56,156 bases of DNA from Cyanobacteriota bacterium. Lineage in GTDB: Bacteria > Cyanobacteriota > Cyanobacteriia > CACIAM-69d. A program made the translations under genes and the position numbers. Positions within the stretch are counted from its first letter, which is position 1. Every line of letters starts with the position of its first letter. Positions 7,087 to 38,692 of the stretch are shown here, one piece after another. The notes beneath the pieces are model-generated. The model was not told the origin of the DNA, did no database searches, and was given only the letters and a program-made list of their open reading frames with translations. The DNA lies in NCBI GenBank assembly GCA_022402445.1, contig JAKRSF010000002.1, forward strand, positions 1-56,156, given 5' to 3'.

Positions 7087-8142
7087 ATGAACATCATCGA
7101 TCTCTTCTCCGGTGCCGGTGGTCTTTCCCTCGGGTTACGCCGTGCCGGATTCAACGTGATCGCCAACGTGGAGCTGAACCGAGATGCCATGGATACCTAT
7201 GCAGCACACGATCCCAGCGCCCAACATTTCAACGAAGATATTCGCAGCCTTTCCTTCAAGCACTTTCGCAGCACCGTAGATGTGGTTGTCGGCGGCCCCC
7301 CATGTCAACCCTTTTCCATTGGTGGCCTGAGAAGGGGAAACACTGACGAACGGGACATGATTCCGGAATTTATACGTTGCCTCCAGGAGATTCAGCCCGC
7401 CGCATTTTTAATGGAAAACGTTCCCGGTTTAATTCAAAAAAAGGCACGCCCCTATTTCGAGGCCATTTTAGTCCGGTTGGCCACCTGTGGCTATTATCTA
7501 AGCTGGGCAATTGTGAATGCAGCCGACTACGGTATTCCTCAAAAACGGAAACGACTAATTGTGATGGGCTATCGTGATGAGCAGCTCCAATTTCCGGCTC
7601 CTTCCCACGGTCCCAGTACAGATCAGCCCCATGTAAAAGCCCTAGATATTCTGGGTGAGCAACCCATCGGAGCCCCTCCTAACTGTCCCGTGAAATTCGC
7701 TAAACGCCCGGATTTGCGATCCAGTCCCTACGCAGGTCATCTCTATAATGGCGGTGGTCGGCCTCTCGACCCCCAGGGACCCAGCCATACAATTTTGGCA
7801 TCGTCAGGCGGACATAAAACCCACTGGATTGACACAGAAAAAATTGCACCAATCTATCATTCACATCTCCAGTCGGGAGGACTTCCCTGGGTTGGGGAAG
7901 TACCGGGGGCGCGACGACTGAGCGTGGAGGAATGCGCCATTATACAAACTTTTCCAAAGAAGCTGTGGTTTGCAGGCAAACGATCATCTCAATATCAACA
8001 AATTGGCAATGCGGTTCCGCCTGATCTTGCCTCAATAATTGGCAAAGCTCTCTATTGCCAATTGAACAAGAAAGCCAGCAAAATCACCTATCTTGAAAAT
8101 GCAATAAGCACAAAAGCAATTCAACTAAAGCTCTCTATATAG
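7087..8142 (+). CDS. DNA (cytosine-5-)-methyltransferase of a type II R-M system
   Basis: This 351-residue enzyme transfers a methyl group from SAM to carbon 5 of cytosine in DNA. Conserved C5-MTase motifs are clear: motif I IDLFSGAGGLSLGL (residues 4-17), motif IV VGGPPCQPFS with catalytic Cys73, motif VI MENVPG at 109-114, motif VIII QKRKRLIV, and motif X QIGNAVPP near the C terminus. The target-recognition region, roughly residues 190-290, does not let me read a sequence specificity. Base composition is clearly more A+T-rich than the neighbours and there is no HIP1 site, consistent with transfer. A probable cognate nuclease gene begins 13 bp downstream, which argues for an R-M pair rather than an orphan enzyme. 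Confidence 0.93.
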   Translation: MNIIDLFSGAGGLSLGLRRAGFNVIANVELNRDAMDTYAAHDPSAQHFNEDIRSLSFKHFRSTVDVVVGGPPCQPFSIGGLRRGNTDERDMIPEFIRCLQEIQPAAFLMENVPGLIQKKARPYFEAILVRLATCGYYLSWAIVNAADYGIPQKRKRLIVMGYRDEQLQFPAPSHGPSTDQPHVKALDILGEQPIGAPPNCPVKFAKRPDLRSSPYAGHLYNGGGRPLDPQGPSHTILASSGGHKTHWIDTEKIAPIYHSHLQSGGLPWVGEVPGARRLSVEECAIIQTFPKKLWFAGKRSSQYQQIGNAVPPDLASIIGKALYCQLNKKASKITYLENAISTKAIQLKLSI

Positions 8143-8155
8143 GAAAATCAAATTT

Positions 8156-9214
8156 ATGAGGAATGAGAAAATCGAAAAATCAGTTCAATTGGTCGTTGAC
8201 CTCATCGACAGACTCAACAAGGGAGAGTCATTAGGAGAGCCTGCATCTCTTGAGATCAAGAACATCTTCGACACCCACGTTGAAAAACAGGGTGGAAGTG
8301 TCAGACTGGCTTGTGTCTTCTTGGCTGCATATTCACTAATTGACCGTGACTGAGATTTTATTTCAGTTCCGACAGGGATTCGAGGCAAGTATGGGGACAA
8401 GCGGCTGGCCAGTGAGCTGACCTTTAGAAACGTTACTTTCCACAAAAACATAACTGCTTTTGGTGAAAATCTTGGATGGAAAGGCGCTGTCCGTCAGTTT
8501 GATTTATCCAAAGATTCTAGATTTTCTAAATTCCTATTAGACCTCAAGAGTCTCTCAGAGGAAAAACGTAAGTTGCTGGTCAATCATATTGCCTGGAGAC
8601 TGGAATCTTCTCGAACTATTCCGCAAGCACTACCACCACTACCCTTTAACTATTTATCATATGCTCGAAGTCTATATCTTTGCGAACAGCTTGTTTCTGT
8701 GCCATCCGAAGGACATATTCAACAATTTCTCGTCTCAGCATTTCTTGAAGTTCACAGAAAGCGCTTTGGCAACCGGATCGTAACGCACCACCCTCATTCT
8801 TCAGATAAATTTAGCGGAACCAAGGGAGACATTGAGGAGTTCAGGGAAGATGAGTTATTAGCAGCCTATGAGGTAACCGTTAGGAGTGATTGGAAAAACA
8901 GACTGGCAGACTTCAGAGACAAGAGCTTAGAAGGTGGCATCTCAAAATATGTCATCTTTGCTTCAAATGTTCGCAGTGATCCAGAATTATTCCCTGCCAA
9001 ACGATTAACAGACTTTGTAGGGCATTTACCATTCGACTTGGCCGTCGTTGACATTCTAGATTTTTTCTCAGTTTTCTGTGCCGAGCTGCGCCGGGATGAA
9101 ATCAACAGGGCATTTAATAGAGCGTATGAATTACTCTCTGATCCTAGGCTAAGCGGTCGCGATGACCTCACGAGAAAGTTTCGCACTGTGACGGATGAGT
9201 GGATTGAAAGTTAG
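8156..9214 (+). pseudogene. Probable type II restriction endonuclease gene interrupted by an in-frame TGA
   Basis: From the ATG at 8156 to the TAG at 9212-9214 one frame is open except for a single TGA at 8351-8353, after residue 65. The stretch from 8354 to 8572 has no stop, and no ATG, GTG or TTG until TTG at 8573, so the halves read as one protein of about 352 codons. I do not recognise the family firmly; it may belong to uncharacterised proteins that travel with C5 methyltransferases. A possible nuclease core is GTKGDIEEF followed by YEVTVRSDWKN, resembling PD-(D/E)xK with a changed last residue. Position directly after the methyltransferase and the shared A+T-rich composition support the assignment. 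It is either a dead gene, a readthrough gene or a sequencing error. Confidence 0.68.
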
Positions 9215-9326: not shown

Positions 9327-10049
9327 ATGGAGACAGAGAAGCGACAGGATAGTCAACTGACCACATCGCGGGCGGCGCTGTTTCGCCTCTGGGGCCTGTG
9401 GACCTTGGCCTATGGGTTGGGGGCGGCGCTGTTGGGGGAGGCGCTGATCGGGGCGCTGTTGATCAATGGGGATGGGGGCGATCGCGGGGTTGGTGCAATG
9501 CTCCTGTGGCGCGGGATTGGGGTAGTCATGGTTGCCCTGGGGGCCGCGATCGATGGCGGTTTACAGGGATTGGCCCTGCGGCGTTGGGTGCCCAGTGGCC
9601 GCCAGTGGGCGATCGCAACGGCCCTGCCCCTAGGAATTGGATTAAGTCTGCCCCTGCTGGTCCCCAAGGGCATATTGGTAGATTTGCCGCTGGTTTGGTG
9701 GCTGCTGGCCCTGGTGCCCAGTTGCCTGATCGCCAGCCAATACATGCTGTGGCGGCGCTGGGTGCGGCGACCGTGGCTGTGGGCGGTTCTGGGGCTACCG
9801 GCCTGGGGCCTGACGGCGGTGGCGGTGGTGGTGGTGGGGGCCTATTCCGTGATGTCCCTGGGGATGGGGGATGGGATCAATGGGGGCCACCCTTGGGGTT
9901 TGGGTTTATTTAACGGGGCGATTGATGGGCTGGTGGCGGGAGCTCTCAAGGGGGGCATTGTGGTGTGGTTGGTGCGATCGCGGGCAATCAACCCGCCGGA
10001 ACCGCGACGACGGCCCATCCTCGATCCCAACAGTTTCAAGAATTCGTAG
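9327..10049 (+). CDS. Conserved cyanobacterial multi-pass membrane protein
   Basis: This 240-residue protein has about six hydrophobic segments and a basic C-terminal tail. Two internal segments resemble each other: a GLQGLALRRWVPSGRQW stretch near residue 80 and a SQYMLWRRWVRRPWLW stretch near 137. Each is followed by a Gly/Leu-rich helix, suggesting an internal duplication. A glycine-rich GAIDGLVAGALKGGIVVWL helix closes the membrane region. The pattern recalls a widespread cyanobacterial family of unknown function. HIP1 reappears inside it (9478), so it belongs to the host genome rather than to the preceding R-M island. No enzymatic motif is visible. Confidence 0.7.
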   Translation: METEKRQDSQLTTSRAALFRLWGLWTLAYGLGAALLGEALIGALLINGDGGDRGVGAMLLWRGIGVVMVALGAAIDGGLQGLALRRWVPSGRQWAIATALPLGIGLSLPLLVPKGILVDLPLVWWLLALVPSCLIASQYMLWRRWVRRPWLWAVLGLPAWGLTAVAVVVVGAYSVMSLGMGDGINGGHPWGLGLFNGAIDGLVAGALKGGIVVWLVRSRAINPPEPRRRPILDPNSFKNS

Positions 10050-36926: not shown

Positions 36927-37653
36927 CGGGATGAAGGCTCAACTCACGGGGTTGATCAAACGGCTTTGGAATAGCCAAAAATGCCCCCTCGACCGACGGC
37001 CGGGGAACTTGGAAAATGGTTGCAACTTTCTAGGGTGGCGCAGGGAGGGCTCCAACGGTCCTTGGCGATATCGCGGTCTTCCCCAACGGAAACCACCGCC
37101 ACCTCACCCGCCCAGAGCCATGCCATAGCCCTTACTTTGCCCCTTTTGGGGGTGCCCTTTACGATATCAGACGGCGGGGCAGCCCCCCGAGCGATCGCCC
37201 CACCGCACGCCCCATCGCCCCCCAGCCCCCTAGGACTCCAGCCCTAGGTATCAATTTCTTAACCCGCCGTAGGGAAACGTAACGAAATCAAGGCCAATTA
37301 ATCCCACGTTATCGAAGCGATTGGAATTGGCAAAGTAGTAGGGGACCGCTTTTCATTACACTGGGGCAGGACTGAGACTTGTGTCAGTTAACCGCGTTCG
37401 GGCGACATCAGTGGTACCTTGGAAGGTATGCCCTCTCGGGGGTTAAACCGTCAACAGGAATCGTGAAAATCGCGTCTTGCTTGGGAATCTCTCGGGATTT
37501 TCCATGGCTTTTTGCGCGATCGCTACCCTAGAGCAAGCCGCCCAGAGGAACCGTCGGTTCACCGCAGTCCCCCCAGGCAGCAACCCCCAGGCGTAGCGTA
37601 GAGCGTTCGTTTGCCCCAGTTTCTTCAGTTTGGATATCTAGAGGAGTTCGGCA
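36927..37653. promoter_or_regulatory. Shared divergent control region of ndhF4-ndhD4-cupB and ccmKLMNO
   Basis: This 727-bp spacer must carry the promoters of both CO2-concentrating operons. HIP1 copies lie near 37190 and 37512. A dyad TACCTT-GG-AAGGTA is at 37415-37428. The leader directly before ccmK (37594-37653) has GTAGCG, AGCGTTCG, TTGCCC and TTTCTTCAG blocks, followed by a good ribosome site AGAGGAG. No coding sequence is convincing. I cannot assign CcmR/NdhR or RbcR sites with confidence. Confidence 0.6.
37415..37428. promoter_or_regulatory. Dyad TACCTT-GG-AAGGTA upstream of ccmK
   Basis: Six-base arms pair perfectly around a two-base spacer, about 225 bp upstream of ccmK. The shape fits a site for a dimeric regulator, but no regulator is identified and no promoter can be aligned to it with certainty. 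Confidence 0.35.
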
Positions 37654-37962
37654 ATGCCAATTGCAGTGGGAATGATCGAAACCCGTGGCTTCCCCGCCGT
37701 TGTTGAGGCAGCTGACGCCATGGTGAAAGCGGCCCGCGTAACGCTAGTGGGTTACGAAAAAATCGGGAGCGCCCGCGTGACGGTCATCGTCCGTGGCGAC
37801 GTTTCGGAAGTGCAAGCTTCGGTGGCAGCCGGCGTCGAGTCGGTGCGTCGCGTGAACGGTGGTGAAGTGGTCTCGACCCACATCATTGCCCGTCCCCACG
37901 AAAACCTGGAGTATGTGCTGCCGATTCGCTACACCGAAGCGGTTCAGCAGTTCTCCGAGTAG
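37654..37962 (+). CDS. ccmK: Carboxysome shell hexamer protein CcmK
   Basis: This 102-residue single BMC-domain protein forms the hexameric facets of the beta-carboxysome shell, whose central pore is thought to pass bicarbonate and RuBP. The sequence runs from [20 protein letters not shown] through [20 protein letters not shown] to [14 protein letters not shown], very close to CcmK2/CcmK1-type proteins. The pore region reads KIGSAR. A strong AGAGGAG site precedes the ATG. Most beta-cyanobacteria have two ccmK genes at this spot; here there is only one before ccmL. Confidence 0.97.
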
Positions 37963-38264
37963 GGAACAGTCCCATCGGTCGGCTGCCGGGGCGGGGGAGG
38001 TCATCATCGCCTACCGCCCGCGCCATCAGCAATGATGCCCAGGGCGATCGCCCTTCCGTGGCATCCGACTGACCACTTAACTGACCCCAGGGTTGTAGCG
38101 TTCGCCGTTGAAAGATTGCCCATTTCTTCAGGTTTTCTGAATGGGATGGGGGTCAGTTCAAGGGCCTAATCCGGTTCCTAGACAGGAGCTTCGGATGCCC
38201 TTGAGTATGCGAGCCCATGGCCCAAGGGCGCACCACCAGGATTTTTGCTGTTGGGAAGGTCACC
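37963..38264. other. Long ccmK-ccmL spacer with leader-like motifs and a hairpin
   Basis: This spacer of about 300 bp is long for an operon interior. It contains a HIP1 copy in GCCCAGGGCGATCGCCC (near 38038), and AGCGTTCG (38097-38104), TTGCCC and TTTCTTCAG (38123-38131) blocks that echo the leader of ccmK. A bulged stem formed by CCCATT..CAG and CTGAATGGG lies around 38119-38145. No reading frame resembles a BMC protein, so no ccmK remnant is visible. Confidence 0.55.
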
Positions 38265-38591
38265 ATGCAGATTGCTCGGGTACGCGGAACCGTCGTCAGT
38301 ACCCAAAAAGAACCCAACTTGCAGGGGACCAAGTTCCTGCTGGTTCAGCTTGTGGATGATACGGGTCAACCGACCACTCGATACGAAGTGGCGGCGGATG
38401 GGGTGGGGGCCGGCATCGATGAGTGGGTGCTTGTCAGTCGCGGCAGCGCGGCGCGGCAGGTGGTCCGGGGGGCTGATCGCCCGATTGATGCGGCGGTGGT
38501 TGCCATCATCGATACCGTCAGCGTCGAGAATATGCGCCTGTACAGCAAGCGGGATGATGACCGTTTGCTGTTGCCTGATCGCGATGGCTAG
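38265..38591 (+). CDS. ccmL: Carboxysome shell vertex protein CcmL
   Basis: This protein of about 108 residues belongs to the EutN/CcmL pentamer family that caps the vertices of the carboxysome icosahedron. The N terminus MQIARVRGTVVSTQKEP is the classic CcmL start, so I choose the ATG at 38265 (preceded by GGAAGG) over the upstream in-frame codon at 38217. Other recognisable parts are LQGTKFLLVQLVD, GAGIDEWVLVSRGSAAR and the C-terminal VVAIIDTVSVEN. It lies between ccmK and ccmM in the operon. Confidence 0.96.
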   Translation: MQIARVRGTVVSTQKEPNLQGTKFLLVQLVDDTGQPTTRYEVAADGVGAGIDEWVLVSRGSAARQVVRGADRPIDAAVVAIIDTVSVENMRLYSKRDDDRLLLPDRDG

Positions 38592-38692
38592 GGCGAGTGA
38601 TTCTAGGGCGCGGGGGCGGTTTGCTGCGTCTTGGGCGACGATCCTTTGACCCAGCGATCCCTTGAGAGACGAAGTGTTTGGAGGAAGTCGCG

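What the first reader, a model, noticed from the sequence alone, without database searches (positions are those of the whole stretch)
8156..9214. Restriction-type nuclease gene split by one in-frame TGA
The frame from 8156 to 9214 is open apart from TGA at 8351-8353, and there is no start codon between the stop and TTG 8573. That is the pattern of one gene with a nonsense change (for example TGG to TGA) rather than two genes. If the nuclease is dead while the adjacent methyltransferase is intact, this is an R-M system becoming an orphan methyltransferase. Readthrough would be a more unusual alternative.
Basis: partly seen in the sequence, partly recalled or inferred. Interest (0 to 1): 0.6.

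Follow-up and report, generated by a model that had tools for sequence, protein, structure and literature searches.

The report
Restriction enzyme gene broken by stop
A cyanobacterium carries a foreign-looking restriction-modification gene pair whose DNA-cutting half is interrupted by one stop codon where every intact relative found has tryptophan, while the methylating half looks intact, so this is most likely an ordinary, very recently disabled restriction system that now only methylates DNA.

Summary
The frame 8156-9214 has one internal stop, TGA at 8351-8353, and no ATG, GTG or TTG between it and TTG 8573. Both halves match consecutive parts of one PADLOC type II restriction enzyme profile (positions 3-64 and 70-352). 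Four full-length relatives (44-74% identical) are each one uninterrupted gene next to the same kind of C5 methyltransferase, and all four have TGG (Trp) at the stop column. So this is one restriction enzyme gene with a nonsense codon, not two genes. The methyltransferase at 7087-8142 is intact. Apart from the stop, the nuclease gene shows no decay: its nonsynonymous divergence equals the methyltransferase's. The change is therefore very recent, or possibly a sequence error. The pair is an AT-rich island (42-50% GC against about 65%), and the nuclease was found in none of the other cyanobacterial genomes sampled. TGA is a normal stop here: release factor 2 is present, no SelB, tRNA-Sec or UCA tRNA was found above cut-offs, and no other gene in the window is split. 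Efficient readthrough is unsupported; weak leakage as Trp is not excluded. The fold is distantly EcoT38I-like. This is a new example of a known process.

The parts
7087..8142 (+). Intact C5-cytosine DNA methyltransferase (M), 351 aa
   Evidence: Pfam PF00145 E 3.4e-70 over 1-322/324; PADLOC MTase_II PDLC03307 E 2e-96; PCQP, ENV, QKRKR and GNAVPP motifs present in the sequence; 71-73% identical to M of L002-L004
8156..9214 (+). Type II restriction endonuclease gene (R), 352 codons, interrupted by one nonsense codon
   Evidence: PDLC03410 REase_II E 2.4e-95 with the stop read through; 74/72/72/44% identical to uninterrupted relatives
8351..8353 (+). In-frame TGA at residue 66; the four intact relatives have TGG (Trp) in this column
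   Evidence: codon alignment, protein alignment
8156..8353 (+). N-terminal 65-residue fragment that the gene is expected to make; it lacks the predicted nuclease domain
   Evidence: translation; the predicted alpha/beta nuclease core lies at residues 187-300 of a low-confidence model
8573..9214 (+). Longest possible restart product (TTG start, 213 aa); not a separate gene in any relative
   Evidence: ORF list; in-frame start scan; relatives are single ORFs
8828..8884 (+). Conserved GDIEE-x8-AYEVTVR segment (residues 225-243), the likely PD-(D/E)XK-type active site, retained in the DNA behind the stop
   Evidence: invariant D225, E239, V240, T241 in all five sequences; assignment as active site is inference

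Best explanation
A horizontally acquired type II restriction-modification pair (C5-methyltransferase, then restriction endonuclease) lost its nuclease very recently through a nonsense change at a conserved tryptophan codon, residue 66 of 352. Translation should stop after 65 residues, before the predicted catalytic domain, so no nuclease is made. The intact methyltransferase can go on methylating the host genome. This state is viable and works as a solitary methyltransferase. Shown: the stop, single-gene homology, Trp in relatives, intact M sequence, absence of other decay. Inferred: that M is expressed and active, that R is null, that the change is real in the organism.
For: Halves match contiguous profile positions 3-64 and 70-352 of PDLC03410. 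Four uninterrupted relatives have TGG at the stop column, and all score on the same profile. M has full-length Pfam and PADLOC matches. Against L002-L004, dN of window R is 0.17-0.21 and of window M 0.18-0.21; 9 of 138 conserved R columns changed against 14 of 163 for M, so no decay beyond the stop. AT-rich island; R found in none of 95 other relatives and none of the other genomes in a 386-genome phylum sample. TGA is an ordinary stop: RF2 present, 6 of 40 genes end in TGA, 325 TGG codons and no other split gene seen. No second copy of R in the genome.
Against: One assembly with no reads, so the base could be wrong. R shows no relaxed selection, which fits a recent loss but also an error or a still-used gene. 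UGA is the leakiest stop in bacteria (PMC4989110), so a small amount of full-length protein is possible. Expression and activity of M are untested.
Confidence: 0.84

Rival explanations
1. Sequencing or assembly error, or a mutation fixed only in the sequenced culture: the natural strain has an intact R-M system.
For: R is otherwise as conserved as M; a single base difference accounts for everything; no read data.
Against: No other split gene was seen among about 40 genes of the window; the assembly is good (13 contigs, 99.93% complete, 0 contamination); the site is not in a homopolymer or repeat that commonly causes errors (sequence).
Confidence: 0.09
2. Leaky decoding: near-cognate tRNA-Trp(CCA) reads this UGA as Trp at low frequency, giving a little full-length, correct nuclease and so a throttled restriction activity.
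For: UGA replaces exactly a Trp codon; UGA readthrough of 1e-2 to 1e-3 is documented in enterobacteria (PMC4989110); the genome's only tRNA-Trp has A at position 24 (my numbering), the nucleotide created by the E. coli Hirsh G24A mutation that promotes UGA readthrough (PMC13092985); R coding sequence is undecayed.
Against: A24 is normal in cyanobacteria (18 of 20 genomes), so nothing is special to this genome; no stop-proximal RNA structure (z = +1.4); RF2 present; the relatives have TGG, so the stop is not a conserved regulatory device.
Confidence: 0.05
3. Translation restarts at TTG 8573 and the 213-residue C-terminal piece, which holds the predicted catalytic region, acts as a separate nuclease or together with the N-terminal fragment.
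For: AGAGG lies about 12 bases upstream of TTG 8573; the predicted alpha/beta core (residues 187-300) lies inside the piece.
Against: No relative is organised this way; conserved residues 66-139, including the conserved FGENLGWKG block, would be lost.
Confidence: 0.015
4. UGA encodes selenocysteine, or is reassigned to Trp in this genome.
For: In-frame UGA in an otherwise open gene.
Against: No SelB above cut-off (best 192 bits, where 242 is needed); no tRNA-Sec above cut-off; no UCA-anticodon tRNA among the 40 tRNAs; RF2 present; 325 TGG and no other in-gene TGA seen in the window; relatives have Trp, not Cys.
Confidence: 0.005

Closest known systems
PADLOC REase_II family PDLC03410 (type II restriction enzyme; Sphingomonas parapaucimobilis plasmid member WP_347093833.1)
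   Same: Full-length profile match; same gene order, C5 methyltransferase then nuclease
   Different: Window copy has a stop at residue 66; 44% identity to the Sphingomonas member
EcoT38I restriction endonuclease (PDB 7edb, 7e8r)
   Same: Best fold match along the whole length (Foldseek E 8.6e-6, probability 1.00; VIA-align Z 11.0, 263 residues aligned)
   Different: 11-14% identity, rmsd near 18 A, low-confidence model (pLDDT 63.5); no sequence match. Shared specificity is not shown.
Solitary (orphan) DNA methyltransferases formed by loss of the restriction gene
   Same: Intact methyltransferase without a working cognate nuclease
   Different: The nuclease gene is still present in nearly perfect form; Oliveira et al. 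2014 (PMC4176335) conclude that solitary genes rarely arise this way

Membership tests
PDLC03410 type II restriction endonuclease | Significant match over most of the profile | tested here: met
   E 2.4e-95, positions 3-352 of 355, with the stop read as a residue
PDLC03410 type II restriction endonuclease | One uninterrupted reading frame | tested here: not met
   TGA at 8351-8353; relatives L002-L005 are uninterrupted. It is a disabled member, not a working one.
PDLC03410 type II restriction endonuclease | Cognate methyltransferase next to it | tested here: met
   C5 methyltransferase 7087-8142; same neighbour in L002-L005
PDLC03410 type II restriction endonuclease | Sequence-specific DNA cleavage | not testable with these tools
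   needs purified protein
EcoT38I-like endonuclease | Same fold | tested here: inconclusive
   Foldseek E 8.6e-6 and Z 11.0, but rmsd near 18 A on a pLDDT 63.5 model
EcoT38I-like endonuclease | Detectable sequence similarity | tested here: not met
   No PDB sequence matched by phmmer or profile up to E 10
C5-cytosine DNA methyltransferase (PF00145) | Full-length domain with catalytic motifs | tested here: met
   1-322 of 324, E 3.4e-70; PCQP, ENV, QKRKR, GNAVPP in the sequence
Solitary (orphan) methyltransferase | No working cognate nuclease nearby or elsewhere in the genome | tested here: inconclusive
   Only copy of R in the genome is the interrupted one; absence of activity untested
Selenoprotein / recoded UGA | SelB and tRNA-Sec, or a UGA-decoding tRNA | tested here: not met

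The most novel reading that the evidence does not exclude
The UGA is a leaky brake: cyanobacterial tRNA-Trp(CCA), which naturally carries A24, decodes it as Trp at low frequency, so restriction continues at a throttled and safer level while methylation is full.
Probability: 0.04. Interest if true: 0.6.

Novelty: new member of a known kind. Interest (0 to 1): 0.25.

Why it matters
It looks like a restriction-modification system caught right after losing its nuclease, a step long assumed to create orphan methyltransferases but reported to be rare in pan-genome surveys (PMC4176335). Practically, such a strain should no longer restrict incoming DNA at this site while still methylating its own. It also gives a clean native reporter for UGA-to-Trp leakage in cyanobacteria. 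If the base is an error, it matters only as an annotation correction.

Tried and rejected
Two separate genes: rejected, because all relatives are single ORFs and none starts near residue 140. Selenocysteine or codon reassignment: rejected. Stop-proximal readthrough structure: none. Repeats that could mediate phase variation at the stop: none found. Empty-site comparison: not possible, because the right-hand neighbour (9327-10049) is absent from the five same-family genomes and no other gene tested from this side of the window lies next to rsmA there. dN/dS proper: synonymous sites are saturated for nearly all pairs, so only dN and conserved-column counts were used. More relatives: none in viral contigs or phages, one in plasmids. 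Recognition sequence: not determined; EcoT38I's site cannot be transferred on a fold match. Restriction families in Pfam and NCBIfam: no match for R.

Full report
Observation. The frame 8156-9214 is open except for TGA at 8351-8353 and ends at TAG 9212-9214. No ATG, GTG or TTG lies between the stop and TTG 8573.

Identity. Nothing in Pfam or NCBIfam matches the nuclease frame. In PADLOC-DB the part before the stop matches positions 3-64 of the type II restriction enzyme profile PDLC03410 (weak on its own, E 0.0018), the part after matches 70-352 (E 9.4e-85), and the whole frame with the stop read through matches 3-352 of 355 (E 2.4e-95). The upstream gene 7087-8142 is a full-length C5-cytosine methyltransferase (PF00145 E 3.4e-70, 1-322 of 324) with the PCQP, ENV, QKRKR and GNAVPP motifs visible in the translation.

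Relatives. Three genome contigs encode close full-length relatives: L002 (Chromatiaceae MAG, 74%), L003 (gammaproteobacterial MAG, 72%) and L004 (Synechococcaceae MAG, 72%). A Sphingomonas plasmid encodes a fourth (L005, 44%). Each is one uninterrupted gene directly after a C5 methyltransferase, and all score on PDLC03410. All four have TGG at the column where the window has TGA, and this Trp is among the invariant columns.

Age of the change. Synonymous sites are saturated for nearly all pairs, so dN was compared. Against L002-L004, dN of window R is 0.17-0.21 and of window M 0.18-0.21. Of columns conserved in the other four sequences, the window differs at 9 of 138 in R and 14 of 163 in M. 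No frameshift or second internal stop exists. The nuclease gene therefore shows no sign of decay besides the stop. The simplest reading is a very recent nonsense change; a base-call error looks the same and cannot be tested here without reads.

Context. The pair lies in an AT-rich island, 42-50% GC against about 65% around it. R was found in none of 95 other genomes of the same family and class and in none of the other genomes of a 386-genome phylum sample. This fits horizontal acquisition. The genome holds one R of this family, the broken one, and five C5 methyltransferases.

Is TGA a stop here? Release factor 2 is present. SelB and tRNA-Sec have no match above cut-off. None of 40 tRNAs has a UCA anticodon and the single tRNA-Trp is CCA. 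In a hand-chosen set of 40 likely genes of the window (R left out), 6 end in TGA; they contain 325 TGG codons, and no other split gene was seen. TGA therefore terminates. The one tRNA-Trp has A at position 24 by my numbering. The E. coli G24A (Hirsh) mutation promotes UGA reading (PMC13092985), but the same D-arm sequence occurs in 18 of 20 cyanobacterial genomes, so it is normal there. Background UGA leakage of 1e-2 to 1e-3 is known in enterobacteria (PMC4989110). Low leakage restoring exactly Trp cannot be excluded, but nothing here supports it specifically.

Mechanism. Translation should end after 65 residues. A structure model built from four sequences is of low confidence (pLDDT 63.5, pTM 0.48). 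It places an alpha/beta core at about residues 187-300, containing the invariant GDIEE-x8-AYEVTVR segment, which I take, by inference, as the PD-(D/E)XK-type active site. All of it is behind the stop. The best fold match along the whole length is the restriction enzyme EcoT38I (Foldseek E 8.6e-6, Z 11.0), but at 11-14% identity and rmsd near 18 A, and no sequence match was found. I treat EcoT38I as a lead on fold, not on recognition site.

Place among known things. Loss of the restriction gene with retention of the methyltransferase is a well-known idea. Oliveira et al. [quoted passage not shown] It is not a new kind of system.

Verdict. Observation confirmed, interpretation supported. The main uncertainty is whether the base is real in the natural strain.

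Noticed in passing
window 1-56156: Although the flanking DNA is about 65% GC, TAG is by far the commonest stop (27 of 40 hand-chosen likely genes), with TGA (6) and TAA (7) rare; most GC-rich bacteria favour TGA (background knowledge).
   Followed up: partly
L052:1501-1574 (own genome C9): The single tRNA-Trp(CCA) has A at position 24 (D-arm GAAC), the nucleotide of the E. coli Hirsh UGA suppressor; the same D-arm sequence is in 18 of 20 cyanobacterial genomes sampled.
   Followed up: partly
L008, L010, L011, L012 (own genome): Four further C5-cytosine methyltransferases exist in this genome; whether they have partner nucleases was not checked.
   Followed up: no
window 8142-8156: M and R are separated by 13 bases here, whereas in L002 and L003 the R start overlaps the M stop by 4 bases (GTGA), which suggests translational coupling there.
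   Followed up: no
window 37654-38649: Two small same-frame ORFs (102 and 134 aa) 282 bases apart in an otherwise sparse stretch (36927-38677); possibly a remnant or small genes.
   Followed up: no
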